From Pseudorhodoferax sp. Leaf274 (lineage in GTDB: Bacteria; Pseudomonadota; Gammaproteobacteria; Burkholderiales; Burkholderiaceae_C): a DNA stretch of 64,000 bases. The notes under the pieces were generated by a model. It was not told where the DNA came from and searched no databases. It was given only the letters and a program-made list of their open reading frames with translations. Where the stretch lies: the NCBI RefSeq assembly GCF_001422445.1, contig NZ_LMNA01000030.1:516781-580780 (forward strand), given 5' to 3'. The position numbers were made by a program, and so were the translations under genes. Below, in pieces: positions 45,158 to 61,059 of this stretch (its first letter is position 1; every line of letters begins with the position of its first letter).

Positions 45158-46237
45158 ATGGATCGTCGTTCCGTCATCAAGAATGCAGGCATTGCCGGTG
45201 TGCTGGCCGCGGGCATCGCGCCGGCCGTGCATGCCCAGGCGGCAGTGCGCTGGCGCCTGGCCTCGAGCTTCCCCAAGTCCCTGGACACCATCTTCGGTAC
45301 GGCAGAGGTGTTCGCCAAGAAGGTGAGCGACATCACGGGCGGCAAGTTCCAGATCTCGGTGCATGCCGGTGGCGAACTGATGCCGGCCTTCGGCGTCGTC
45401 GATGGCGTGCAGAACGCGTCCGTGGAAATGGCCCATACCGCGCCGTACTACTTCTACGGCAAGGACCCGACCTTCTGCCTGGGCTGCGCCGTGCCCTTCG
45501 GCATGAACGCGCGCCAGATGACCGCCTGGATGTACGAGGGCAATGGCCTGAAGCTCATGCGCGAGTTCTACGCCAAGTACAACATCATCAACCTGCCGGG
45601 CGGCAACACCGGCGCGCAGATGGGTGGCTGGTTCCGCAAGGAGATCAAGACCGTCGCCGACCTCAAGGGCCTGAAGTTCCGCACCAACCCGTTCGCCGGC
45701 AAGGTGCTCGAGCCCTTCGGCGTGGTGCCGCAGTCCATCCCCGGCGCCGACCTGTACCCGGCCCTGGAAAAAGGCACGCTGGATGCGCTGGAGTGGGTCG
45801 GCCCCTACGACGACCAGAAGCTGGGCTTCAACAAGGTCGCCAAGTACTACTACTACCCCGGCTGGTGGGAAGGCGGCCCGCAGCTGGACTTCTACATCAA
45901 CAACAAGGCCTGGGATGCGTTGCCCGCGGAGTACAAGGCCGCCGTCGAGGCCGCGGCCTCGCACGCCCACGTGACCATGACCGCCAAGTACGACGCGCGC
46001 AACCCCATCGCGCTCAAGCAGATGGTGGGCACCGGCACGCTGCTGCGTCCGTTCAGCAACGAGATCATGAATGCGGCCTTCAAGTCGGCCCAGGAGATCT
46101 ATGCCGACCTGAACGCCAACAACCCGGAGTGGAAGAAGATCTACCCCGACTACCAGAAATTCCTGGCCGACCAGAACGCCTGGTTCCGCTTCGCCGAAGG
46201 CCTGTTCGACCGCTTCATGCAGCAGCAAAAGCTCTGA
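45158..46237 (+). CDS. dctP: TRAP transporter substrate-binding protein (DctP family)
   Basis: This 359-aa periplasmic binding protein has a twin-basic, hydrophobic N-terminus (MDRRSVIKNAGIAGVLAAGIAPAVHAQ), possibly a TAT signal. A TRAP-SBP domain with the segments ELMPAFGVVDGVQNASVEMAHTAPYYFYGKDP and LKGLKFRTNPFAGKVLEPFGVVPQSIPGADLYPALEKGTLDALEW follows. The conserved Arg of the carboxylate site is in KFRTNPF (about 175). It is convergent with the permease genes (46731-48824), and a bidirectional gap with a terminator separates them, so SBP and permease are on opposite strands. Substrate probably a small organic acid. Confidence 0.92.
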   Translation: MDRRSVIKNAGIAGVLAAGIAPAVHAQAAVRWRLASSFPKSLDTIFGTAEVFAKKVSDITGGKFQISVHAGGELMPAFGVVDGVQNASVEMAHTAPYYFYGKDPTFCLGCAVPFGMNARQMTAWMYEGNGLKLMREFYAKYNIINLPGGNTGAQMGGWFRKEIKTVADLKGLKFRTNPFAGKVLEPFGVVPQSIPGADLYPALEKGTLDALEWVGPYDDQKLGFNKVAKYYYYPGWWEGGPQLDFYINNKAWDALPAEYKAAVEAAASHAHVTMTAKYDARNPIALKQMVGTGTLLRPFSNEIMNAAFKSAQEIYADLNANNPEWKKIYPDYQKFLADQNAWFRFAEGLFDRFMQQQKL

Positions 46238-46256
46238 GCTTCTGCCGCCTGGACCC

Positions 46257-46284
46257 AGCCCGCCGCCCGGCGGGCTTTTTATTT
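46257..46284 (+). terminator. Rho-independent terminator after dctP
   Basis: AGCCCGCC (46257-46264) and GGCGGGCT (46269-46276) form a perfect stem with loop GCCC, followed by TTTTATTT. Its tail overlaps the stop codon of the convergent gene at 46279. Confidence 0.88.
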
Positions 46285-46730
46285 GTGGGCCGGCAGGTGC
46301 TGCTGGGCGACCAGCAGTGAGAAGGCGATCAGCAGCTGCGGATCGGCGCTGTGGAACCAGGTCACGCCGCCGCCGCGCCGGCGCACCAGCAGGCGCGGCG
46401 CGACGATGCGCTCGAGCCAGGGCAGGTGCACGAGCTTGAGCGAGGACACGTCGCCCACCCGCACGCGCTTGGTCCAGACCCAGGTCTGCGACAGCTCGCC
46501 ATCGGCCAGCCGCGTGCGGCTGCGCACGATCCAAGTGCCCATCCAGAGCACCATGGCGGCGGCCGCGGCGAACACCACAAGGCCGGTGGCGTTCCACTGC
46601 GCCTGCAACAGCTTGGGGGCTTGCCACAGGCCCAGCAGCACGAGGTCGGCCACGAGGACCACGGCCAGCATGCGCGCGGCACGCGGGAACGCCGGGCTGT
46701 CCTGCGCGGCAGGCGCCGCGCCGGGCTCGG

Positions 46731-46734
<4 letters not shown>
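46279..46734 (-). CDS. Two-TM membrane protein of unknown function coupled to the TRAP permease
   Basis: This 151-aa protein has two hydrophobic segments (about residues 20-40 and 50-70) followed by a cytoplasmic part with TWVWTKRVRVGDVSSLKLVHLPWLERIVAPRLLVRRRGGGVTWF. Such small two-helix proteins with a basic, PH-like beta tail have no named function. Its ATG overlaps the stop of the dctM gene (ATGA), so it is translated with the TRAP permease and may belong to that system. The C-terminus meets the dctP terminator head-on. Confidence 0.75.
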
Positions 46735-48248
<1,514 letters not shown>

Positions 48249-48284
48249 GGGAACGGTTCCTGGGAAGGGTCGGACGCGCGCTGC

Positions 48285-48824
48285 TTACTGCAGCGGTTTC
48301 TCGTAGTGGGTGTCCATGACCCTGGCGCCGCTCAGGTGCGCGAGGCGCTTGATGATCTCGGCCAGGCCCTGCAGGAACATCACGCCGAAGCCCAGCGGCA
48401 TCAGCAAGGCGGCCGGCCAGCGGATCAGGCCGCCGATGCTGCCGGAGATCTCGCCGGTCTGGTACATGTTCCAGAAGAACGGAGCCGTCAGCCAGAACAT
48501 CAGGCCCATGACCGGCAGCAGGAAGAACGTCAGGCCGAACAGGTCCACGTAGACCGGCCCGTGGCCCTTGAGCTTGCCGTAGACGATGTCCACGCGCACG
48601 TGCTCGTTCAGGCTCAGCACGATGGGGGCGCCGAGCATCACGGTCGCGGCGAAGAGATACCACTGGATCTCGAGCCACGCGTTGGAGCTCATGTCGAGCC
48701 CATAGCGGATGAAGGCATTGCCGGCGGAGATCAGCGCGGCGGCCAGCACGGCGATGGCCGCGATGCGGCCGATCATGCGGCTGAGCCCGTCCACGGCCAG
48801 CGCGAACTTGAGAAGTGCAGACAA
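48285..48824 (-). CDS. dctQ: TRAP transporter small permease (DctQ family)
   Basis: This 179-aa protein with four TM helices is the small membrane subunit of the TRAP system. The segment NAWLEIQWYLFAATVMLGAPIVLSLNEHVRVDIVYGKL is the family signature. I choose a TTG start at 48824 because GGAGAC lies 8 bases ahead. The frame stays open to 48938, but the extra residues look non-native. Confidence 0.85.
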   Translation of the reverse strand: MSALLKFALAVDGLSRMIGRIAAIAVLAAALISAGNAFIRYGLDMSSNAWLEIQWYLFAATVMLGAPIVLSLNEHVRVDIVYGKLKGHGPVYVDLFGLTFFLLPVMGLMFWLTAPFFWNMYQTGEISGSIGGLIRWPAALLMPLGFGVMFLQGLAEIIKRLAHLSGARVMDTHYEKPLQ

Positions 48825-49010
48825 GAGTCGTCTCCGGATCGAAGAAGTTGGGCGGCCGCACCGGTGGGCGCGGCAGCACGCCGGACGCTGGGGGCGTCGT
48901 CCGTTCGTGGCGGAAGCGCGCGATGATACCCGTCCCATTTGCAGGGTCTACCCTGATGGACGGGCATGCCAGCGGCACGGCGCGCAGGGCCGCCGTGCCC
49001 ATAATGGCCC

Positions 49011-50896: not shown

Positions 50897-51772
50897 TCAG
50901 CGCGCCGCCAGCAGCGCCACGAGTTCGGGCAGCAGCCGCTCGCCGTTGCCCGCCTGCACGGCCGCGTCCAGTGTCTGGCGCACGCCCTGGGCCACGTCGC
51001 GCGGCGCGCCGCCGTCCTCGGCCATCTGCGTGTAGTAGCCCAGGTCCTTCAGCGCGTTGGACATCGAGAAGCGCAGGCCCGAGGTGTCCTGCGCGAGCAG
51101 GAAGGGCTTGAGCCGTTCCAGCGCCGCGCCGCCGCCGCCGCCCTTGGCCAGCACGTCGACGAAGACCTCGGGCGCGACGCCCGCGCGCTGCGCGCAGGCC
51201 GCGGCCTCGGCCAGCAGCGTGACGAAGCCCAGCGATACGTAGTTGTGCAGCAGCTTCATGCGGTGGCCGGCGCCGATCGGGCCGGCGTGCGTGATGTTCT
51301 CGGCGAAGCAGGCCAGCAGCGGCCGGCATTCGGCGAACAGTGCGGCGTCGCCGCCGACCAGCAGGTTCAGCCGGCCCTCGTGCGCCTCCTTGGGCGTGCG
51401 CGTCATCGGCGTGTCCAGGAAGCGGCCGCCCGCGGCCTGCACGGCCTGGGCCACGCGCTCGGTGGAGGTGGGCACCGCCGTGGAGCAGTCGATCACCACG
51501 GTGCCGGGCTGGAGCCCCTCCAGCACGCCGCCCGCGCCCAGCAGCACGGCCTCGACCTGGGGCGTGCCGGTCACGCACAGGACCACCACCTCGGACGCGG
51601 CGGCCACGTCCCTGGCGCTCGTCTGCGTGGTGACGCCGGCCGCCTTCAGTTCGTCCAGCGGCTGGTTGCCGGCGTGCTCGAGCACGGTGAGCGGGTAGCC
51701 GTGCCTGGCGATGTTGCGCGCGATGCCGTGGCCCATGAGGCCGATGCCGATCATGCCGATCTTCTGTTTCAT
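50897..51772 (-). CDS. 3-hydroxyisobutyrate dehydrogenase-family NAD(P) oxidoreductase
   Basis: This 291-aa beta-hydroxyacid dehydrogenase has the NAD(P) motif GIGLMGHGIARNIARHG and the catalytic Lys in GHRMKLLHN (Lys173). The substrate loop usually reads DAPVSGG. Here it is LDTPMTRTPKEAHEG (residues 119-132), so the carboxylate-binding Ser-Gly-Gly is replaced. The substrate is therefore likely not hydroxyisobutyrate or tartronate semialdehyde. AAGGAC precedes the ATG. It is divergent from the isopropylmalate dehydrogenase-type gene by 107 bp. Relatives include L-threonate dehydrogenase (LtnD), which fits the acid-sugar neighbourhood. Confidence 0.82.
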   Translation of the reverse strand: MKQKIGMIGIGLMGHGIARNIARHGYPLTVLEHAGNQPLDELKAAGVTTQTSARDVAAASEVVVLCVTGTPQVEAVLLGAGGVLEGLQPGTVVIDCSTAVPTSTERVAQAVQAAGGRFLDTPMTRTPKEAHEGRLNLLVGGDAALFAECRPLLACFAENITHAGPIGAGHRMKLLHNYVSLGFVTLLAEAAACAQRAGVAPEVFVDVLAKGGGGGAALERLKPFLLAQDTSGLRFSMSNALKDLGYYTQMAEDGGAPRDVAQGVRQTLDAAVQAGNGERLLPELVALLAAR

Positions 51773-51879
51773 GCCGTTGTCCTTGCGTGGTGGCGGGGTG
51801 GCCGGGGTGGTATGGGGGGCCTGCGGCGCGGGATTGTCTGGCATATTCGCCGGCCACAGACCAAGGAGACCCGACAGCC

Positions 51880-52965
51880 ATGCGCAGCTACGACATCGCG
51901 ACCATCGAAGGCGACGGCATCGGCCCGGAGGTCTGCCAGGCGGCGGTCACCGTGCTGGCCGAGGCCTGCGGCACCGGCCTGCTGAACTTTGCCCAGCTCG
52001 ACGGCGGCGCCTTGCACTACCAGCGCACCGGCGCCGTGCTGCCGGACGACACCTTCGCCGCCTGCAGCACCATGCACGCCATGCTGCACGGCGCGGCCGG
52101 CCTGCCGGGCGTGACCTATCCCGATGGCACCGAGGTCGGCAACGACCTGCACCTGCAGCTGCGCTTCAAGCTCGACCTGTTCGCCAACGTGCGGCCGATC
52201 CGGCTGTATGCGGGCGCGCAGTCGCCGCTGTCGGGCTTCAAGCCAGGCCAGATCGACTACGTGATCGTGCGCGAGAACACCGAAGGGCTCTATGCCAGCC
52301 GCGGCGCGGGCGTCAACCTGCGCGGCGAGGTGGCGACCGACCAGCTCGTCATCACGCGCAAGGGCACGGAGCGCGTGGCCAGGTTTTCGTTCGACCTGGC
52401 GCGCCGGCGCAAGGGCGCGCCGCGCGACGGCAAGCGCCGCGTGACGGTCTGCGACAAGGCCAACATCCTGCGCAGCTATGCGTTCTTCCGTGCCGTCTGC
52501 GACGAGGTGGCGGCCGGCTACCCCGACGTGGAGATCGACTACGCCTATGCCGACGCGATCACCGTGCACATGCTCAAGAAGCCCGATTTCTACGACGTGA
52601 TCGTGGCCGAGAACATGTTCGGCGACATCATTTCCGACCTGGGCGCAGGCACCGTGGGCGGCCTGGGCATCGCGGCCTCGGCCGAACTCGGCGAGCGCCA
52701 TGGCCTGTTCCAGGGTGCGCACGGCTCGGCGCCCGACATCGCGGGGCAGAACCTGGCCAGCCCCATCGCCACCATCCTGTCGGGTGCGCTGATGCTGCGC
52801 TGGCTCGGCGAGCAGCACGGCGACCAGGCGCTGTCGACCGGCGCCGACCGTGTCGAGCAGGCCGTCGAGGCGGTGCTGGCCGAAGGCCGCGTGGTGCCGC
52901 GCGACCTGGGCGGCCAGGCCAGCTGCACCGAGATGACCGACGCGATCTGCCGGCGCCTGCGCTGA
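51880..52965 (+). CDS. Isocitrate/isopropylmalate dehydrogenase-family enzyme
   Basis: This 361-aa decarboxylating dehydrogenase has an NAD/substrate pattern [11 protein letters not shown] at the N-terminus and the substrate Arg-Arg segment [12 protein letters not shown] (about 110). The catalytic [18 protein letters not shown], the metal-binding DIISDLGAG and the C-terminal [15 protein letters not shown] are also present. It oxidises a 2-hydroxy or 3-hydroxy diacid and removes CO2. Tartrate dehydrogenase or 3-isopropylmalate dehydrogenase are possible, as are other sugar diacids. leuCD genes are not nearby, so a catabolic role is more likely. AAGGAG precedes the ATG. Confidence 0.85.
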
Positions 52966-52967
52966 AG

Positions 52968-53693
52968 TCAGCCAGCGCCCTGCTGCTGCGCGATGCGCTG
53001 GTACATCGCGTTGGAGCGCAGCAGATGGGCGCGCATGGCCTGCTCGGCCGCGTCGCCATCGTGCGCGGCGATCGCATCGACGATGCGCTGGTGCTCGGCC
53101 AGCGTCAGCTGCTCCGCGCCGGGCGCGCGCACCAGCGGCTGGTAGTAGTCGCTGCCCCAGCGGAAGATGGCCTCGACGATGGCCGGGAAGATCGGGTTGC
53201 CGCCGATGCGCGCGATCTCGCGGTGGAAGGCCATGTCGCGGTCCAGGAAACGGTCCAGGTCCGCCAGTGAATCCCTGTGCTCGGCGATGCGCTGCTGCAA
53301 GGCCTGCACATCCTCGCGCGTGGCGCGCTCGGCCGCCATGCGCGCGGTGCCGGCTTCGAGGAACACGCGCGCGTCCTTCATGTGCTCCAGCGTGTCGGGC
53401 TGCATGCTGAGCAGGTGGCGTGCGCCGCTGCCGATCTGGCGGATCAGGTCGTCGGCCGTGGGCACCACCACGCGGGCGCGCTCGCCGTGCGAGATCTCCA
53501 CGATGCCCGAGCGCTCCATCGCCTGCAGCGCCTCGCGCACGGCGGGCCGGCCGACGCCGTAGAAGTCCATCAGCTCGCGCTCGGGCGGCAGCTGGTCGCC
53601 CGGGCGGATCTCGCCGCCCTCGATGCGTGCCATCAGGCGCTCGACGACCTCCTGGTAGAGCTTGCGTTTGAGGATCGGGCCGGTAGAGCTCAT
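52968..53693 (-). CDS. GntR/FCD-type regulator, NanR-like
   Basis: This 241-aa protein has an N-terminal GntR winged helix (IEGGEIRPGDQLPPERELMDFYGVGRPAVREALQAMERSGIV) and a C-terminal FCD domain (about 85-235) with likely metal ligands in DRDMAFHREIA, EHQRIVDAIAAHD and MRAHLLRS. FCD regulators bind acids such as gluconate, lactate or sialate. The N-terminus resembles NanR. It is convergent with the isopropylmalate-type gene (two bases apart) and lies just downstream of the RLP operon, so it probably controls that operon. Its operator is not known. Confidence 0.87.
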   Translation of the reverse strand: MSSTGPILKRKLYQEVVERLMARIEGGEIRPGDQLPPERELMDFYGVGRPAVREALQAMERSGIVEISHGERARVVVPTADDLIRQIGSGARHLLSMQPDTLEHMKDARVFLEAGTARMAAERATREDVQALQQRIAEHRDSLADLDRFLDRDMAFHREIARIGGNPIFPAIVEAIFRWGSDYYQPLVRAPGAEQLTLAEHQRIVDAIAAHDGDAAEQAMRAHLLRSNAMYQRIAQQQGAG

Positions 53694-53747
53694 GCGTAAG
53701 GCGCGGACGGGCAGGGTGGGGCGCGGTGGGTGGGCTGGGCCGGCACA

Positions 53748-55145
53748 TTATCCGGTGGGCTGTGCAGCGGTTCCGTCGCGCACGCTGGCGAAGAAGCCGG
53801 CCGCGCCCATCTGTCCGCCCTTGAGCACGATCTCCAGGCCGTCGCGCCGTGCATCGGCCGACCATGCGCGGCACAGCGGCGCGCCCGGTGCCAGGCCCGC
53901 GGCGACCGTGAGCGCCGTGATGCCGAGCGCGGCGGCCACCTCGCCCGAGCTGTCGCCGCCGGCCACCGCGATGCGGCGCAGCGCAGGCACGCGGTCGAGC
54001 AGCGCGCGCATGGTGGCGGCCAGCACTTCGCCGGTGCGCTGGCCGGCCTGCGCGCGCGACAGGCCTGCGCTGGCAGCGGTGGCGTCGAAGGCGTGCACCG
54101 CCGGATCGTCAGGGCCGCGTGCGGTGTAGATCAGCGGGCTGGCCCCCTGCTCAAGAGCGGCGCAGGCCGCGGCGAGCACGCGTGCGACTTCGGCCTGCGC
54201 ATCGGGGCCGAGCGCGCGCGCCAGGTCGAGCCGCAGCAGTGCAAAGCCATCGGCCTCGGCCTGGTCGATCTGCCGCGCCGTGACCGGCGAGCAGCTGCCG
54301 CTGACGGCGGCCATGCGGCCGGCCGGGGCGGCGGGCGGGAGCGGCACTGGGGCAGGCAGCTGGCCTTGGGAGCGCCACCAGGCCGCCAGCGCGTACTGCA
54401 GGCCGGATGAAGAGGCTGTGAACACGCCCGCGCCGCGCTGCTCCCAGGCCAGACGGCCGGCCTCGCGCAGCGTGTCGTCGTCCAGCACGTCGACCAGCAC
54501 GATGGGCGGTTCGCCCGCACCGTCCAGGCACTGTGCCAGCGCGTGCGCACCGCGCCCGGCCTTGAGCTGCGTGAAGTCCACCAGCGCGCGTGCGCGCCCG
54601 GTTTGCGCGCCCAGGTGGCGGCGCAGATCGGCCTCGGCCATGGGCGTCACCGGGTGGCGCGACATGGTCGGGTGCCGGTCCAGCCGCCAGCCCTGGCCGT
54701 CGGCCACGGCGAACAGGTTGCCGAACGCCTGGTAGCGGCCCAGGCGCGGTGCGCCCACCACCATGGGCGACCAGTTGCCAGGCATCAGCGGCACGCCGAT
54801 GTCGATGGCGCAGCCGATCGAGCCCGTGGTGGGCGAGGAGTCGAAGGTGGAGCAGACCTTGTACTGCAGCAGCGGCGCGCCGAGCCCGGCCAGCGCCCGC
54901 AGGGCCGGGCGCAGATGGGCCTGCATCCAGGCCGGGTCGCGGCCGCGCGACTGCCCGGCCAGGCCCACGCAGCGCGCGTGCGGAAAGCGCGCCAGAGCCG
55001 CCGCATCCGGCGTCTGCAGGAACAGCACGGTCGGCACGCCGGCGGCCGTGAAGGCCTCCAGCACGTCGGTTGAGCCGGTGAAGTCGTCGCCGTAGTAGGC
55101 CAGCAGCAGGCCATCGGGGAGTTCGGTGGGCAGGGGTTCGGCCAT
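53748..55145 (-). CDS. Four-carbon acid sugar kinase (DUF1537 family), OiaK-like candidate
   Basis: This 465-aa protein has the two-domain architecture of the DUF1537 kinases: the N-terminal part starts with LAYYGDDFTGSTDVLEAF (D20, D21) and the C-terminal ATP-binding part has VAGGDSSGEVAAALGI and VLKGGQMGAAG. Members phosphorylate D-threonate, L-erythronate-derived 3-oxo-tetronates or 3-oxo-isoapionate (OiaK). The start at 55145 overlaps the RLP stop by one base. Being next to an RLP and an ApnO-like gene favours 3-oxo-isoapionate or another 3-oxo acid sugar as substrate. This is inference. Confidence 0.87.
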   Translation of the reverse strand: MAEPLPTELPDGLLLAYYGDDFTGSTDVLEAFTAAGVPTVLFLQTPDAAALARFPHARCVGLAGQSRGRDPAWMQAHLRPALRALAGLGAPLLQYKVCSTFDSSPTTGSIGCAIDIGVPLMPGNWSPMVVGAPRLGRYQAFGNLFAVADGQGWRLDRHPTMSRHPVTPMAEADLRRHLGAQTGRARALVDFTQLKAGRGAHALAQCLDGAGEPPIVLVDVLDDDTLREAGRLAWEQRGAGVFTASSSGLQYALAAWWRSQGQLPAPVPLPPAAPAGRMAAVSGSCSPVTARQIDQAEADGFALLRLDLARALGPDAQAEVARVLAAACAALEQGASPLIYTARGPDDPAVHAFDATAASAGLSRAQAGQRTGEVLAATMRALLDRVPALRRIAVAGGDSSGEVAAALGITALTVAAGLAPGAPLCRAWSADARRDGLEIVLKGGQMGAAGFFASVRDGTAAQPTG

Positions 55146-56407
55146 CACCAGAATCCCAGCGCGGCCTGCAGCGCGGTGTGCTGCCGCGCGTGTTCGGCCA
55201 GCGGCACGCCAGCCTGCGCGGCGTCCCAGGCCTGGCGCATCGCGGCCACGCCCGCGCCGATGCCGCCCGGGTGGCCCAGGATGCCGCCGCCGGCGGCGTG
55301 GATCAGGTCGCAGCCGCCCACGGCCGCGTGCGTGGGCGCGGCCTGCAGCCCGGTCTGGCCGGAGCTGAACACGGGCATGGCGGCCATGGGATGGTCGGTA
55401 AAGGCCGGCGCCAGCACCGCCCGCGCAGCGGCGATGACGCTCTCGTCCGGCTCGCTGAACTTGTTGGCCAGGCCGTTCACGTGCAGGTGGTCGGCACCGG
55501 CCAGGCGCCAGAGCAGCTGCCAGGGCGCGTAGTCCCAGCCCAGGGCCGGGCTGCGCGACAGGTAGCCCCAGCCGGCACGGTGCGCGTGGATCGGCAGCTG
55601 CGCGTGCTTGCGCAAGGCCAGCAGGCCGGCGATGCCGATGGAGTTGAGGCAGACCATCACGCAGGTGCCGCCGAGTGCGAGCACCAGGTCGTGGCGCGCG
55701 CGCATCTCGTCCAGGTCGCCCGTGATGTTGAAGGCCACCATGGCCTTGCGGCCGCTGCGCTGGGCCGCGTCGTTGACCACCTGCATCACGGCGCGCGCGC
55801 GTTCGTCGAACGGGCAGTGCGGGCCGTCGGCCTGCAGTTCGTCGTCCTTGACGAAGTCGATGCCGCCTTCCACCAGCAGCCGCACCGTGTCGGCCGTCTG
55901 CGCCGGCGACAGGCCCACGCTGGGCTTGACGATGGTGCCGATCAGCGGGCCATGCGCAACGCCGGCCAGTTGGCGCGTGCCAACGATGCCGAAGGCCGGT
56001 CCTGGCGCAGCGGCCGCAAAGGCCGCCGGCAGGCGCAGGTCCAGCAGCCGCAGCCCCGACACCTGGCGCAGCTCGAACAGGTTGCCGGCCACGGTGGACG
56101 CCAGGTTGGGCAGCGAGGGCCCCAGGTTCTCCAGCGGCCACGACAGCGTGAGCCGGCAGCGCGTGTAGCGCGCCGACACCATGCCGCCGGGCAGGCTGGG
56201 GCGGTCGCTGTGGTCGATCACCTCCAGCTGCTCCACGCGCGCACCGGAGCGCGCCTTGAGCGCGGGCGTCTCGCCCGGCACGGCCGTGAAGGTGCCGCTG
56301 GACTGCTCGCCGGCGATGACCTCGGCGGCGCGCTGCGGGTCATCGCCGGTCTCCAGCCAGTAGCTGGCGTGGATGCGGCCATCGGCCGATTCGAAGCGGG
56401 CCGCCAT
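55145..56407 (-). CDS. RuBisCO-like protein (RLP), candidate 3-oxo-isoapionate-phosphate processing enzyme
   Basis: This 420-aa protein is of the RuBisCO large-subunit family but is not the CO2-fixing enzyme. Retained are K161 (KPSVGLS), the carbamylated Lys with the metal acids K187-D189-E190 (GGIDFVKDDE), H276-R277 (HAHRAG), the two His of DHLHV, loop-6 K316 and S348. The spinach K177 equivalent is Ser (S163) and the H298 equivalent is Trp (W280), so RuBP carboxylation is unlikely. RLPs of this type act as decarboxylase or transcarboxylase (OiaX or OiaT) in D-apionate breakdown. It lies between dctP-like and kinase genes, four bases and one base away. Confidence 0.88.
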   Translation of the reverse strand: MAARFESADGRIHASYWLETGDDPQRAAEVIAGEQSSGTFTAVPGETPALKARSGARVEQLEVIDHSDRPSLPGGMVSARYTRCRLTLSWPLENLGPSLPNLASTVAGNLFELRQVSGLRLLDLRLPAAFAAAAPGPAFGIVGTRQLAGVAHGPLIGTIVKPSVGLSPAQTADTVRLLVEGGIDFVKDDELQADGPHCPFDERARAVMQVVNDAAQRSGRKAMVAFNITGDLDEMRARHDLVLALGGTCVMVCLNSIGIAGLLALRKHAQLPIHAHRAGWGYLSRSPALGWDYAPWQLLWRLAGADHLHVNGLANKFSEPDESVIAAARAVLAPAFTDHPMAAMPVFSSGQTGLQAAPTHAAVGGCDLIHAAGGGILGHPGGIGAGVAAMRQAWDAAQAGVPLAEHARQHTALQAALGFW

Positions 56408-56411
56408 GCTG

Positions 56412-57401
56412 CTACCGGACGTCCTGGATCTTCTTGATGTTCTCGGCGCCGAACTCCTTGGCGTAGGCGGCGTAGGCGGGCTTCAGCGCTTCCTGGAAGG
56501 CGGTCTTGTCGACGTTGCGCACCACCTGCATGCCTTCCTTCTCCATCAGCGCGACGCCGTTGGCATCGTCCTCGTCGACCTTCTTGCGCTGGGCCGCGGT
56601 GCCGACCTTGGCCGCGTCGAGGAACACCTTCTTGTCGGCGTCAGACAGCTTGCCCCACAGCCTGGTGGAGACCAGCAGCAGGGCGGGCGAGTAGACATGG
56701 CCCGTCAGCGAGGCGTACTTCTGAACCTGCCAGAACTTGGAGCTGATGATGACCGGGATCGGGTTCTCCTGGCCGTCGACCGTGCCCTGCTGCAGCGCGC
56801 CGAACACCTCGGGGAAGGCCATCGGCGTGGGCAGAATGCCAAAGGTGCGGTAGCCGTCCATGTGCACCTTGTTCTCCATGGTGCGTACCTTCAGGCCCTT
56901 GGCGTCTTCGGGCTTGACGATGGCGCGCTTGCTGTTGGTCATGTGGCGAAAGCCGTTCTCGGTCCAGGTCAGCGCCACCAGGCCCTTGGCCGGGAACTTG
57001 GTCAGCAGCTCCTGGCCGATCGGGCCGTCGAACACCTTGCGCGCATGGTCGTAGTCGCGGAACAGGAAGGGGATGTCGACCACCTTGATCTCGGGCACGA
57101 AGTTTCCGACCGGGCCGGTCGAGGTGATCACCGCGTCCTGCGTGCCGAGCTGCACGGCCTCGATCTGCTCGCGCTCGCCGCCCAGGGCCGAGCTCGGGAA
57201 CTGCTGGCACTTGTAGCGCGCCTGGGTGTTCTTCTCGATCTCGGCGCAGAAGGTGGTCGAGCCGACCCAGTAGTGCGAATCCTTGGCCGGCGTGTAGCCG
57301 ATCTTGAGCACGGTCTGGGCCGAGGCGCCGACGGCGAGCAGGGCCAGGGTGGCGGCGATGCCGGTGCGGGCGAGCGTGAGAGCGGGGTTGATCTGGGGCA
57401 T
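56412..57401 (-). CDS. TRAP transporter substrate-binding protein (second, orphan)
   Basis: This 329-aa periplasmic SBP has a signal peptide ending near LLAVGASAQ, then a DctP fold with FCAEIEKNTQARYKCQQFPSSALGGEREQIEAVQLGTQDAV and LKVRTMENKVHMDGYRTFGILPTPMAFPEVFGALQQGTVDGQENP. The conserved Arg of the carboxylate site is in KVRTMEN (about residue 172). AAGGAG precedes the ATG. No dctQ or dctM sits in this operon, so it must use a permease elsewhere, perhaps the one at 46731-48824. Its position inside the RLP operon suggests the transported acid is the operon's substrate. Confidence 0.92.
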   Translation of the reverse strand: MPQINPALTLARTGIAATLALLAVGASAQTVLKIGYTPAKDSHYWVGSTTFCAEIEKNTQARYKCQQFPSSALGGEREQIEAVQLGTQDAVITSTGPVGNFVPEIKVVDIPFLFRDYDHARKVFDGPIGQELLTKFPAKGLVALTWTENGFRHMTNSKRAIVKPEDAKGLKVRTMENKVHMDGYRTFGILPTPMAFPEVFGALQQGTVDGQENPIPVIISSKFWQVQKYASLTGHVYSPALLLVSTRLWGKLSDADKKVFLDAAKVGTAAQRKKVDEDDANGVALMEKEGMQVVRNVDKTAFQEALKPAYAAYAKEFGAENIKKIQDVR

Positions 57402-57438
57402 GCGGTGTCTCCTTGGTTTTCGTTGTGGACTGTGGCCG

Positions 57439-58269
57439 TCAGGTGATGCGCCGGATGCTCTCGGCGATCTCGTCGCGTTCGAACACGCCCTTCCAGTCCT
57501 CGCGCATGAGCCGCGGCTTGCCGAAGGTGATGGCCTTGTTGCAGGCGTCGGAGAACTGGCCCGGGATCTCCTTGAAGATCACGGCCGACAGGATGGTCAT
57601 GTGGCCGAGCAGGAAGTCGCGCGCCGCATCGGCCGGCACGCCGCGGCCGACCACCTCGTCCATGGCCTCGCGCATCACGTCCAGCAGCGTGGCGCAGACG
57701 GTTTCCGACAGGCCGGGCTCCAGCAGCGCCATCTGCTCCACCGTCACGCGGTACGAGCGCAGGATGGGCGCGTAGATGGTCCTGGCGATCTCTTCGCCGA
57801 GGTCGAAGTCGGCCGGCGTTCCCTGCATCAGCGCGCTGACGACCGACTGCGGCGCGTGGCCGCCGCCGAAGAAGTCGGGCAGGCCGTCCTTGCGCAGCTC
57901 GGCGCTGAAGATCGGCGGGTGGCAGGGATGGGCCACGAAGTACGCCAGGTCGGCCCGCTCGGGCAGGTGGCCCGCGAACGGCGCCGCGGCATCGAGCAGC
58001 ATCACCATGGTGCCGGGCGCCAGCTGCGGCGCGATGGCATGGGCGATCTTGCCGATCAGCGTGTCGGGCACGGCGAGGATGACGACCTGCGCGCCGTCCA
58101 GCGCCGCGGCCTGCTCCACGCATTCGATGCCGGCTTCATCGCGCAGCCGTTGGCGGCCGGTCTCGCCCACCTCCACATGGCGCACCGCAAAGCGCGAGCC
58201 TTGCAGATTCCTGGCCAGCCGCACGCCCATTTTTCCGCCTGCTCCGAGCAGGGCAATCGTCGTCGTCAT
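57439..58269 (-). CDS. NAD-binding phosphogluconate dehydrogenase-like protein, ApnO-like oxidoisomerase candidate
   Basis: This 276-aa protein has a Rossmann fold with IALLGAGGKMGVRLARNL. Its C-terminal part has the PGDH_C-type arrangement (SYRVTVEQMALLEPGLSETVCATLLDVMREAMDEVVGRGVP) and a conserved LGHMTILSAVIFKEIPGQFSDACNKAI helix region. This layout matches D-apionate oxidoisomerase (ApnO). A CAGGAG site precedes the ATG. It lies between the esterase and the TRAP SBP in the operon, 37 bp before dctP. Substrate assignment is inferred from the neighbours. Confidence 0.75.
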   Translation of the reverse strand: MTTTIALLGAGGKMGVRLARNLQGSRFAVRHVEVGETGRQRLRDEAGIECVEQAAALDGAQVVILAVPDTLIGKIAHAIAPQLAPGTMVMLLDAAAPFAGHLPERADLAYFVAHPCHPPIFSAELRKDGLPDFFGGGHAPQSVVSALMQGTPADFDLGEEIARTIYAPILRSYRVTVEQMALLEPGLSETVCATLLDVMREAMDEVVGRGVPADAARDFLLGHMTILSAVIFKEIPGQFSDACNKAITFGKPRLMREDWKGVFERDEIAESIRRIT

Positions 58270-58300
58270 CGTGTCTCCTGTTGCAAAACGGGGTGGTGTT

Positions 58301-59800
58301 TCAGCGCGCCTTGCGCACCTGGCGGAACATCCAGTCGATCATGTCCTGGTCCTTGTACGAGGCCTCCCACGAGAAGTGGCCGTTGCGCGTGACCATGCCG
58401 AGTTCGCGGAAGTTGTCGCCGTTGCCGTACTGGTACTCGGTGTAGTGCACCTCGGTGCCGCTGTGCTGGTTGGCCGCCAGGTAGTTGCGCACCAGCGGCG
58501 TGCTGCGCGTCATGGCACCGGCCGCAGGTGTTAGCCGGCCCGTGGCGTCGACCTGGGCCTTGCCCGTCAGCGCGCTGAAGGGCACGCGCGAGCCGAGCCG
58601 GCTGACCACCGGGTCGGTGTCGGTGTGGCCCAGCCACACCGGGATGGCCACGTGGCGGTAGTCCACCGCCTGCAGCTCGGCGACGAGGCGGGCCTCCTTC
58701 TGGGCCGGCGTTTCGTTGGCCACGGGGGCGAAGATGCTCTTGGGCACGCCGTTGAAGATCGCCGCCGCGGCGAACTTGCGCGAGATGGCGGGGTTGGCGT
58801 CGGTGATGATCTTCCACGAGCCCATGCCGCCCATCGACAGGCCGGTCAGGTACAGCCGGTCGGTGTCGATGGCAGGGTTCTCGGCGATGACCTTGTCGAC
58901 CAGCGCCAGCAGCAGCTTCATCGTGTCGGTGCCGCGCCTGCCGCCTTCGCCGTTGGCATCGAGCGTGTCGCGCGCGGGTGCCTGGGGCACGAGGACGAAG
59001 CTCCTCTCGGGTGCGCGGCTGACCCAGGCCACGCCCCCCTGGTTGGCCTGCAGCGGCGACTTCACGTCGGCCCGGAAGTCCGTCGGAAAGTGCGCGTAGT
59101 CATGGCTCTGGCCAGAGCCGTGCAGGAACAGCACCAGCGGAATCTTGGCGCCGGCCGGCAGCTCGGCAGGCTTGTAGAAGTTGTAGCCCAGCGACTTGGT
59201 GAGAGGGTTGGCGGGCATCTCGAACACGCCCTGCACGAAGTCGTCGGCGACCAGCATCTTGCTGCCGGCCTGCTGGAAGGTCGCGCCGGCCTTCAGCAGT
59301 TCGACCGTGGAGCCCGGCTGCTTGGCCGAGGCATTCGGCGCGAAGAAGTTCAGGTCGTGCTGCAGCCGCACCTCGTAGACCATCTTGTCCTGGTACGGAA
59401 TCATCTGGCGGATGCCGGGGTTGAAGCCGGCGTACCACGACGACGCGTTGAGGTCGTCCGGGTCCATCTCCACGATCACGTAGCGGCCCTGGCTGGCGCT
59501 GCCGATCTCCGGCTTGGCGCTGGTGTAGGCCTTGGTGACGGTGCGCGGCGCCTTGGCCACCGCGCTGTTGGCGATCAGCTCGCCGGCATAGGTCTTCACG
59601 GGGAGCAGTTCGGCGTTGACCTGGAAGGCGTTTTCCAGCCGCCACTGCAAGGGCAGATCACGCCCGACATCGATGGCCACCGCCACGACACGCGGATTGG
59701 CCTCGCGCACGGTCGAGAGCAGCGTGAACGGGTAGCTCTGGGCCTGCGCCAGGCCCGAGGCACAGACCAGTGCCGCCAGCGACAGCAGTTTCTTCAGCAT
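58301..59800 (-). CDS. Secreted alpha/beta-hydrolase (prolyl-oligopeptidase/esterase-like)
   Basis: This 499-aa protein has a signal peptide (MLKKLLSLAALVCASGLAQA) and an N-terminal beta-rich domain of about 190 residues. A catalytic alpha/beta-hydrolase domain follows with LVLFLHGSG (oxyanion side, about 222), the nucleophile Ser322 in TGLSMGGMGSW, an Asp in LGHTDTDPVV and a His in RNGHFSWE. It is probably a periplasmic or secreted esterase acting on a sugar ester or polymer. A GGAGGAG site precedes the ATG. It is first in the operon with the ApnO-like, dctP, RLP and kinase genes, so it may release or prepare the substrate. Confidence 0.8.
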   Translation of the reverse strand: MLKKLLSLAALVCASGLAQAQSYPFTLLSTVREANPRVVAVAIDVGRDLPLQWRLENAFQVNAELLPVKTYAGELIANSAVAKAPRTVTKAYTSAKPEIGSASQGRYVIVEMDPDDLNASSWYAGFNPGIRQMIPYQDKMVYEVRLQHDLNFFAPNASAKQPGSTVELLKAGATFQQAGSKMLVADDFVQGVFEMPANPLTKSLGYNFYKPAELPAGAKIPLVLFLHGSGQSHDYAHFPTDFRADVKSPLQANQGGVAWVSRAPERSFVLVPQAPARDTLDANGEGGRRGTDTMKLLLALVDKVIAENPAIDTDRLYLTGLSMGGMGSWKIITDANPAISRKFAAAAIFNGVPKSIFAPVANETPAQKEARLVAELQAVDYRHVAIPVWLGHTDTDPVVSRLGSRVPFSALTGKAQVDATGRLTPAAGAMTRSTPLVRNYLAANQHSGTEVHYTEYQYGNGDNFRELGMVTRNGHFSWEASYKDQDMIDWMFRQVRKAR

Positions 59801-59937
59801 CGTGGATGTCTCCTCCAGCAGCCCGGTATGGGCTTGTGTTGTGGCCTGATGGTATGACGACTAGGCCAGAATCTGGGCGACTTGAGGGTAAGTCCCAGGA
59901 TTCCTGAGATTCGCCGGCCGTGCGCCGGAGCGCCGGC
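59801..59937 (-). other. Upstream region of the esterase-RLP-kinase operon
   Basis: This 137-bp gap follows the stop of the GAF-Fis regulator gene and must hold the operon promoter on the minus strand. Read in that direction it contains GTCGTCATACCATCAGG, a possible GntR-like half site (GGTATG on the other strand), at about 59848-59862. No convincing sigma-70 boxes are seen. Confidence 0.35.
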
Positions 59938-61059
59938 TCAGCGCCGGCCGAGCTTGCGGTACACCGTCGCGCGGCTGATGCCCAGCCGGCGCGCAGCCAG
60001 CGCCACGTTGCCGCGCGCCGCATCCACGGCCTGGCGGATCAGCGCATCCTCGACCGTCTTGAGCGGCAGCGGGGCCTCGCCCGCATCGCGCCGGTCGGCC
60101 GCGTGCGCCTGCGCCCACAGCCGCAGGCCGGACCACAGCGGCACGTCGAACGGCCCCCCATGCAGTGCGGCGTCGAACAGGCTGGCGTGGGGCATGGCGA
60201 ACAGTGCATCGGCGTGCACCGCGGCGTTGTGCGGCGCCAGCGCCAGCATGGCGCGCGCCGCCGGGTTGGCGGCCACCACCAGGCCGTCGCCGTCCAGGCC
60301 GAGCAGGCCGTCACTGTCGCCGCCGGGCAGGGCGCCGGGCCAGCTCAGCCGCAGCGCCAGCGCATGGGGCACGGCCAGCGCCAGCGCGTTGTCGATGCTG
60401 CAGGCGGCCTGCGCCGCCAGGTGCTGCAGCTCGGGCCGTTCGGCCACGTCGATGCCGGTCAGGTCCAGCATGCCCGCGAGTTGCCCATCGGCCCCGCGCA
60501 CGGGCGCACCGGCGCAGCTGTAGGCGCCCGTGTCGGCGAAGAAGTGCTCGGCGCGGTGCAGCCAGACCGGCTGCTGCTCGAACAAGGCGGCGCCGATCGC
60601 CGTGGTGCCCACGCGCTGCTCGGACAGGTCGGTGCCGATGCGCGTGATCAACACAGCGCGGCGGTCACTGCGGTCGATGGCGCCATGCGCGTCGACCACC
60701 ACGCCCTGGGCGTTGGTCAGCAGCGCGAAGTAGCGCGTGTGCGCCAGGGCCTGCGCCACGCGCTCCAGCACCGGCCGCGCCGCGGCCACGAGCCGGCGGT
60801 TGTGCTCGGCGGCCGCACGCGCCTGCACGGGCGAGACGGCGTCGAAGTCCAGCGCCTGCTCGGGCCGGTGGCCGGCCGCCAGGCAGCGCTGCCAGGAGCG
60901 TTCGATCCACGGCGCCACCAAGCCCTGCAGGGCGGGCACGCGCTCGCCCAGCACCTGTTCGCGCGCGCGCCGGATCGGCTCGGTGCGGTCGGGCAGGGGA
61001 GGCGGTGACGACTGCAGCATGGTCTTGGTGGCGGCGCGCGCATTGTGCGGCTGTTTCAT
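59938..61059 (-). CDS. AcoR-type GAF-Fis regulator lacking the AAA+ domain
   Basis: This 373-aa protein begins with the AcoR-like N-terminal segment [14 protein letters not shown], followed by a GAF domain (about 85-215, with [22 protein letters not shown] and [29 protein letters not shown]). The C-terminal Fis-type HTH is [35 protein letters not shown]. The sigma-54-activating AAA+ domain normally between them is missing, and the stretch from about 230 to 325 looks PAS-like. Without it, sigma-54 activation is unlikely, so it may act as a plain DNA-binding switch. It is divergent from coxS/coxL. Confidence 0.8.

What the first reader, a model, noticed from the sequence alone, without database searches (positions are those of the whole stretch)
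52968..59800. RuBisCO-like acid-sugar operon with secreted esterase and orphan TRAP binding protein
Seen: genes for a secreted esterase, an NAD-binding PGDH_C-type protein, a TRAP SBP, an RLP and a DUF1537 kinase run in one direction with gaps of 31, 37, 4 and -1 bp, followed by a GntR/FCD regulator. Known: ApnO, OiaK and the RLPs OiaX/OiaT act in D-apionate breakdown. Inference: this is an apionate or related branched acid-sugar operon. The esterase at the head is, as far as I know, not part of the described pathways and may release ester-bound substrate outside the cytoplasm.
Basis: partly seen in the sequence, partly recalled or inferred. Interest (0 to 1): 0.7.

Follow-up and report, generated by a model that had tools for sequence, protein, structure and literature searches.

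The report
D-apionate operon with borrowed importer
A bacterium related to Pseudorhodoferax carries a known kind of gene set for breaking down D-apionate, an acid made from a branched plant sugar; in its lineage the set gained a secreted esterase and has no membrane importer of its own, so it may borrow one from elsewhere in the genome.

Summary
In detail: five genes (secreted esterase, PGDH_C dehydrogenase, TRAP binding protein, RuBisCO-like protein, DUF1537 kinase) run one way with the stated gaps, then a GntR/FCD regulator. It is most likely a D-apionate operon: the kinase passes the curated OiaK cut-off, and the ApnO-RLP-OiaK trio sits beside a curated D-apionate lactonase in Paraburkholderia. 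The RLP fails the OiaX cut-off and is probably the transcarboxylase/hydrolase type (OiaT).

Two points change. (1) The esterase is not a conserved pathway part: no homolog in 80 of 80 OiaK loci fetched, no ortholog in 5 of 5 genus relatives. It lies between a conserved operator-like box and apnO; two relatives carry a scar of about its last 40 bases, so one gain and one loss is the simplest history. (2) The binding protein has no adjacent membrane genes but stays under purifying selection. The closest partner in the genome is a TRAP with a 77% identical binding protein and the membrane type (94% DctM) found inside a relative's operon; a 67% candidate also exists. Related clusters place two binding proteins beside one membrane pair. 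Esterase substrate and partner sharing are untested.

The parts
59847..59864 (-). Conserved box CTAGTCGTCATACCATCA, putative operator of the GntR regulator, 46 bp upstream of the esterase start
   Evidence: present with at most small changes upstream of apnO in the window and L033-L037; the 14-base core found with 2-4 mismatches upstream of apnO in 8 of 20 further loci tested (L039, L041, L042, L045, L046, L049, L051, L052), the other 12 gave only 5-7 mismatches (no shuffle control); regulator binding not tested
58301..59800 (-). Secreted EstA-like serine esterase (499 aa): signal-peptide-like N-terminus ending AQA/Q (by eye), esterase Ig-like domain, likely catalytic Ser322 (GLSMGG), candidate Asp and His in TDTDP (393-397) and NGHFSW (473-478); lineage-specific gene
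   Evidence: absence elsewhere
57439..58269 (-). ApnO-like D-apionate oxidoisomerase (PGDH_C family, 276 aa)
   Evidence: ortholog beside ApnL in L044
56412..57401 (-). TRAP solute-binding protein (DctP family, 329 aa) without adjacent DctQM
55145..56407 (-). RuBisCO-like protein, most likely the OiaT type (3-oxo-isoapionate-4-phosphate transcarboxylase/hydrolase); below the OiaX cut-off
53748..55148 (-). OiaK, 3-oxo-isoapionate kinase (DUF1537: SBD_N + NBD_C); ATG start at 55145, alternative GTG at 55148
52968..53693 (-). GntR/FCD transcriptional regulator (passes the NanR-like subfamily model PRK03837)
51880..52965 (+). Isocitrate/isopropylmalate/tartrate dehydrogenase-family gene, convergent with the regulator; conserved neighbour in several related loci, role unknown
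50897..51775 (-). 3-hydroxyisobutyrate / tartronate-semialdehyde-reductase-family dehydrogenase; conserved neighbour, role unknown

Best explanation
This is a D-apionate import-and-catabolism operon controlled by its GntR/FCD regulator. D-apionate is bound in the periplasm by the TRAP binding protein, which hands it to a DctQM pair encoded elsewhere, most likely the one at contig C28 (inferred). In the cytoplasm ApnO turns D-apionate into 3-oxo-isoapionate, OiaK phosphorylates it, and the RLP, of the non-OiaX (OiaT) type, cleaves it by transcarboxylation/hydrolysis (glycolate plus 3-phosphoglycerate; products recalled). No ApnL match was found in the genome, which suggests that the operon works on the acid and not on apiose. 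The secreted esterase is a later, lineage-specific addition placed behind the conserved operator-like box; it is therefore probably induced together with the pathway and may release the acid from an ester or lactone outside the cytoplasm (inferred, weak). Shown by sequence: gene content, kinase identity, operon orthology, the esterase scar in two relatives, absence of adjacent DctQM, purifying selection on the orphan SBP. Inferred: one gain and one loss of the esterase, the RLP reaction, the SBP ligand, the QM partner, the esterase substrate and regulation.
For: OiaK model 759.9 bits, cut-off 700. ApnO, RLP and OiaK orthologs (73, 77, 65%) stand beside ApnL (821.5 bits, cut-off 750) in L044; RLP is found in 78 and ApnO in 61 of 80 OiaK loci. 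The RLP scores 435.7 on the OiaX model (cut-off 700), whereas two alphaproteobacterial RLPs, L103 and L062, score 782.3 and 748.5; in the RLP tree (78 sequences, midpoint-rooted) the window falls in a 55-member group apart from the 23-member group that holds both OiaX-passing proteins. A review passage says that the K84 and Xanthobacter RLPs catalyse decarboxylation and transcarboxylation/hydrolysis of 3-oxo-isoapionate-4-phosphate (PMC6302742, passages); the RLP of Ancylobacter (L056), same family as Xanthobacter, lies on the window's side. SBP: nearest solved chains 4pdd, 4pdh, 4p9k/4pak, 4nq8; pantoate/D-erythronate is listed among TRAP ligands (PMC5812351, passages). Purifying selection: pairwise dN/dS 0.11-0.28 in 6 of 6 pairs of the four orphans of the genus. 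QM partner. Esterase history.
Against: No enzyme or ligand was assayed. ApnO passes no ApnO-specific model (only Pfam PGDH_C). I had no OiaT model and no characterised OiaT sequence; OiaT is assigned by exclusion and by clade. The SBP's nearest structures point to D-erythronate or pantoate (ligands of these entries recalled; the titles were cut), so the SBP could serve D-erythronate; [quoted passage not shown] The genome has 18 SBP matches and 19 DctM matches (some of the latter are fragments), among them a second fairly close TRAP at C30 (SBP 55%, DctM 67% to that of L037), so the partner is not settled. ApnL absence rests on one protein search without positive control in that genome; ApdH was not searched there. 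Trees disagree between parts of the operon, so recombination complicates the history.
Confidence: 0.75

Rival explanations
1. The operon serves another branched or C4 acid sugar (for example D-erythronate or another tetronate), with the ApnO/RLP/OiaK homologs shifted in substrate.
For: SBP closest to structures recalled as D-erythronate/pantoate bound; D-erythronate dehydrogenase DenD (366.1 bits, cut-off 325) lies in the same cluster in L042, and close copies in L045, L051, L052; ApnL was not found here.
Against: OiaK passes its equivalog cut-off and is far from that of 3-oxo-tetronate kinase (180 of 350); the genome has a separate second SBD_N kinase at C25; ApnO and the RLP are 73-77% identical to the copies beside ApnL in L040, L044, L047 and L050.
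Confidence: 0.12
2. The RLP is a decarboxylase (OiaX-like activity) in spite of its sequence.
For: OiaX is its best NCBIfam hit (435.7 bits); the metal-site Lys-Asp-Glu motif (label recalled) is shared by both groups.
Against: 264 bits below the curated cut-off; separate clade and different residues in the regions of RuBisCO H327/K334 and S379 (labels recalled; LHVNGLANKF against FQINGIGVKY).
Confidence: 0.15
3. The orphan SBP does not import the substrate through a borrowed DctQM: it is a leftover, or it serves sensing or scavenging, and D-apionate enters by another carrier.
For: No DctQM between SBP and RLP in five genomes (window, L033, L034, L036, L039); L035 lacks the SBP in its operon but keeps ApnO-RLP-OiaK.
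Against: Intact frames and dN/dS 0.11-0.28 among four orphans; each of the 11 genomes searched keeps a type A or B DctM; L042, L045, L051, L052 keep two SBPs around one DctQM.
Confidence: 0.35
4. The esterase is a passenger unrelated to apionate, merely lodged behind a regulated promoter.
For: No homolog in the 80 OiaK loci fetched; only a scar left in L033 and L034; nearest solved relative is a general esterase.
Against: 31 bp from apnO with its own ribosome-binding-like sequence, placed behind the conserved box, intact catalytic motifs, GC3 like the neighbours.
Confidence: 0.45

Closest known systems
D-apiose/D-apionate catabolic operons of Carter et al. 2018 (doi 10.1038/s41589-018-0067-7; paper not held; recalled, and seen cited in PMC6302742)
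   Same: ApnO, OiaK and an RLP in one operon; OiaK passes the curated cut-off
   Different: No ApdH or ApnL in the operon; a TRAP SBP without DctQM; a secreted esterase as first gene
D-apiose cluster of Rhodobacteraceae strain LCG007 (PMC11747546, one passage seen)
   Same: D-apionate oxidoisomerase and 3-oxoisoapionate kinase
   Different: That cluster also has apiose dehydrogenase and apionolactonase and a 3-oxoisoapionate-4-phosphate decarboxylase; the passage reports growth on D-apiose
IctPQM/DctPQM of Pseudomonas aeruginosa (PMC12599236, passages seen)
   Same: Proposed use of a non-cognate but similar TRAP SBP (systems 73.6% similar) by another membrane pair
   Different: There the passage speaks of two complete systems; here the SBP has no membrane genes in its operon
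EstA-type esterase 3doh (Thermotoga maritima, organism recalled)
   Same: Ig-like N-terminal domain (recalled for 3doh) plus alpha/beta hydrolase; Ser, Asp and His motif regions align
   Different: Only 76.6 bits; natural substrate not known to me for either

Membership tests
OiaK (3-oxo-isoapionate kinase) | NCBIfam NF042436 score above 700 | tested here: met
   759.9 bits, residues 8-458
OiaX (decarboxylating RLP) | NCBIfam NF042437 score above 700 | tested here: not met
   435.7 bits; of 5 other RLPs scored, L103 (782.3) and L062 (748.5) pass, L044, L056 and L078 (450.9-470.7) do not
OiaT (transcarboxylase/hydrolase RLP) | Clade with characterised Xanthobacter OiaT | tested here: inconclusive
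   Groups with Ancylobacter (Xanthobacteraceae) and away from OiaX; the Xanthobacter sequence itself was not available
OiaT (transcarboxylase/hydrolase RLP) | Reaction products | not testable with these tools
   needs assay
ApnO (D-apionate oxidoisomerase) | PGDH_C-type dehydrogenase in an apn/oia operon, orthologous to copies beside ApnL | tested here: met
   PF16896 229.4 bits; 73% to the L044 copy beside ApnL. No ApnO-specific model matched
Complete D-apiose pathway | ApdH and ApnL present | tested here: not met
   Neither is among the operon genes annotated; no ApnL match in the genome (without positive control); ApdH was not searched genome-wide
TRAP transporter (DctPQM) | DctP-family SBP | tested here: met
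   TIGR00787 248.8 bits, cut-off 175.05
TRAP transporter (DctPQM) | DctQ and DctM next to the SBP | tested here: not met
   SBP end and RLP start are 4 bp apart; the closest DctM is at C28
EstA-like secreted esterase | Esterase Ig-like domain plus catalytic triad motifs | tested here: met
   PF18435 53.4 bits, cut-off 26.7; Ser, Asp and His regions align with 3doh. Secretion judged by eye only
PHA depolymerase type 1 | NCBIfam NF050058 score above 150 | tested here: not met
   65.2 bits

The most novel reading that the evidence does not exclude
One TRAP membrane pair serves two binding proteins, a D-erythronate-type SBP and a D-apionate-type SBP, across Comamonadaceae and Roseateles relatives. 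The membrane pair can be exchanged for one of another type under the same binding proteins (L051 against L052: DenD 94, SBP1 92, DctQ 31, DctM 44, ApnO 97, SBP2 93% identical). In the window's lineage the apionate SBP has become wholly dependent on a DctQM encoded elsewhere, and a secreted esterase or lactonase was added behind the operon's operator.
Probability: 0.4. Interest if true: 0.55.

Novelty: new variant of a known kind. Interest (0 to 1): 0.4.

Why it matters
If the binding protein works with a membrane pair encoded elsewhere, this is a natural and testable case of SBP sharing in TRAP transporters, whose SBP-membrane pairing is described as usually unique (PMC12599236, passage). The esterase history shows how an extracytoplasmic hydrolase can be placed at the head of a catabolic operon and then lost, leaving a readable scar.

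Tried and rejected
Esterase as a conserved pathway gene: rejected (no homolog in 80 of 80 OiaK loci; these are the best 80 of 182 relatives found, and 13 of them are shorter than 16 kb because of contig ends, so a copy further off could be missed). Esterase as an insertion unique to this strain: rejected after the scar was found in L033 and L034. Looking for the donor of the esterase led nowhere: at E <= 1e-30 only the window's own gene in 399 family genomes, at E <= 1e-20 only itself in 300 order genomes, at E <= 1e-10 itself and two partial matches in 398 phylum genomes; in these three searches only the best 3-5 first-look candidates of each genome were scored, and the genome sets overlap. 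No plasmid record matched over 80% of the query (35 records, 20 listed); none in viral contigs. Structure models were poor (esterase pLDDT 32; SBP 52), so no conclusion rests on them; the Foldseek search only repeated the sequence ranking. In 52900-60100 no sigma-70-like promoter was found and 3 terminator-like sites, against a mean of 2.4 in shuffles. The Carter et al. paper is not held, so its pathway details are recalled. The rows listed by paper searches (1 of 1, 20 of 44, 15 of 143, 5 of 5 papers) showed none on an esterase in apionate operons; searches (2 of 2, 10 of 11, 12 of 15 listed) led to the one passage on a non-cognate TRAP SBP. The library holds open-licence papers only. One search (6 of 511 listed) gave nothing useful. 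Passages looked up in PMC11574862, PMC10942642 and PMC11585616 did not bear on SBP sharing.
Full report
Setting. The window lies in a 6.7 Mb genome of 30 contigs (G000:C30:516781-580780). Pseudorhodoferax belongs to the Comamonadaceae, Burkholderiales.

Observation. Profile searches: OiaK 759.9 bits (cut-off 700); RLP, best OiaX 435.7 bits (cut-off 700); DctP-family SBP 248.8 (cut-off 175.05); PGDH_C 229.4 bits (cut-off 25); esterase with the Ig-like EstA domain 53.4 bits (cut-off 26.7); GntR/FCD.

Pathway. One scan of genome contigs with OiaK gave 182 relatives, of which the best 80 were kept; all 80 were examined. In them RLP is found in 78, ApnO in 61 and the SBP family in 22 (E <= 1e-20), ApnL in 34 and ApdH-like Gfo/Idh genes in 33 (E <= 1e-30), and the esterase in 0 (best value 0.16 at E <= 10). 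In a sample of 399 family genomes 23, the window's included, have an OiaK over the cut-off. In Paraburkholderia graminis (L044) a Gfo/Idh dehydrogenase, a curated ApnL (821.5 bits, cut-off 750), an MFS-like gene, ApnO, RLP, OiaK and GntR stand in a row. The Gfo/Idh gene matched no ApdH model and the carrier was named by eye; calling the former ApdH is inference. The window's genome has no ApnL match (no positive control there). The operon thus looks specialised for the acid, D-apionate.

RLP. In a tree of 78 sequences (77 loci plus the window; one of the 78 RLPs counted above was too short) a 23-member group holds both OiaX-passing proteins that I scored (L103, L062), and the window lies in a 55-member group with Paraburkholderia, Ancylobacter, Halomonas and Paenibacillus RLPs. 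Three others of the latter group that I scored (L044, L056, L078) also fail the OiaX cut-off. The metal-site Lys-Asp-Glu motif (label recalled) is kept in the ten RLPs compared and in the window; other motifs separate the groups. With the passage in PMC6302742 the likeliest assignment is OiaT; this is by exclusion and by the family of one member.

Esterase history. DNA alignment with L033 and L034 shows about 1.5 kb between window positions 58334-58340 and 59828-59835 missing there. The window and L033-L037 share the box CTAGTCGTCATACCATCA (with small changes) upstream of apnO; in the window the esterase lies between that box and apnO. Beyond the genus the 14-base core was sought in 20 chosen loci: 8 have it with 2-4 mismatches upstream of apnO, 12 do not (5-7 mismatches, no shuffle control). 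The L034 spacer matches the last 40 bases of the esterase frame, stop included, without gaps (score 32; the best of 500 mononucleotide shuffles 17); L033, a relative of L034 and so not independent, matches more weakly (19 against 17); L035, L036 and L037 do not exceed their shuffles. Unrooted local trees of the two flanks of the site join L033 and L034 with support 100 and 99, apart from the window and from L035, L036, L037. One gain in the ancestor of the window, L033 and L034, and one deletion in L033/L034, is the simplest account. Against simplicity: the trees of OiaK, GntR and the segment 61700-64000 place L034 with L035/L036, and the concatenated tree does too, so recombination has probably occurred. 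The gene has the host's composition (GC 0.677, GC3 0.936). No close relative was found in 399 family, 300 order or 398 phylum genomes, and in plasmids the rows listed show partial matches of at most 28%. Of the five same-genus genomes, four gave only partial 31-35% matches and one none.

Binding protein and its partner. The SBP is nearest to 4pdd, 4pdh, 4p9k/4pak and 4nq8; I recall these as D-erythronate or pantoate complexes, and a review lists pantoate/D-erythronate among TRAP ligands (PMC5812351, passages). In a tree of 32 SBP sequences the window's protein groups with the apn SBPs of its genus (support 91) and is sister to a group with the C28 SBP and other apn-cluster SBPs. Four genus members (window, L033, L034, L036) and L039 have no DctQM between SBP and RLP; L037 has one (type A); L035 lacks the SBP there. 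Pairwise dN/dS among the four genus orphans is 0.111, 0.130, 0.143, 0.219, 0.253 and 0.284 (Nei-Gojobori, rough at this GC). In the window's genome the closest partner is a complete TRAP at C28 between an ETF-quinone-oxidoreductase-like gene and a gcvT-like gene (both named by eye): SBP 77%, DctM 94% to that of L037. A second candidate at C30:208175-210921 has SBP 55% and DctM 67%. In the genomes of L033, L034, L035 and L036 the C28-like place holds another TRAP (type B DctM, 94-96% to the L033 genome's copy, 42-43% to the window genome's type A). L042, L045, L051 and L052 have SBP1-DctQ-DctM-ApnO-SBP2, that is two SBPs and one membrane pair in the locus, after a D-erythronate dehydrogenase gene (DenD scored for L042 only, the others 86-98% identical to it). 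L051 and L052 are 92-97% identical in DenD, SBP1, ApnO and SBP2 but only 31% and 44% in DctQ and DctM. Each of the 11 genomes searched with the type B DctM holds a type A or a type B DctM; G376 and G318 have a further 45-46% match. The type A query was run on the six genus genomes only, so a second pair in the other five is not excluded. The co-occurrence is suggestive at best, since such TRAPs may be common in the family; the in-place exchange and the two-SBP clusters are the stronger evidence. A similar non-cognate pairing was proposed in P. aeruginosa (PMC12599236, passage).

Judgement. Ordinary in its core (a known pathway), with two lineage-specific changes that make it a new variant.

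Noticed in passing
50897-52965: An isocitrate/isopropylmalate/tartrate-dehydrogenase-family gene and a tartronate-semialdehyde-reductase-like gene flank the operon. Both are found beside OiaK in L033, L034, L036, L037, L038, L039 and L055 (7 of 80 loci); in L055 they directly precede ApnO-RLP-OiaK in one row, which suggests a role in the pathway.
   Followed up: partly
L041, L042, L045, L046, L051, L052, L059: An aldehyde dehydrogenase and a short-chain dehydrogenase lie upstream of the RLP in these apn clusters, perhaps an alternative route into D-apionate without ApdH and ApnL.
   Followed up: no
L151 6935-9853 (G000:C28): The TRAP cassette between the ETF-quinone-oxidoreductase-like gene and the gcvT-like gene differs as a whole between the window's genome and four relatives.
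   Followed up: partly
L026 (G003:C1:4123820-4125168): An OiaK-like match split into two overlapping pieces in one family genome, possibly a broken gene.
   Followed up: no
45158-48938: What looks like a second TRAP set (SBP on +, DctM and DctQ on -) of another type lies in the window.
   Followed up: no
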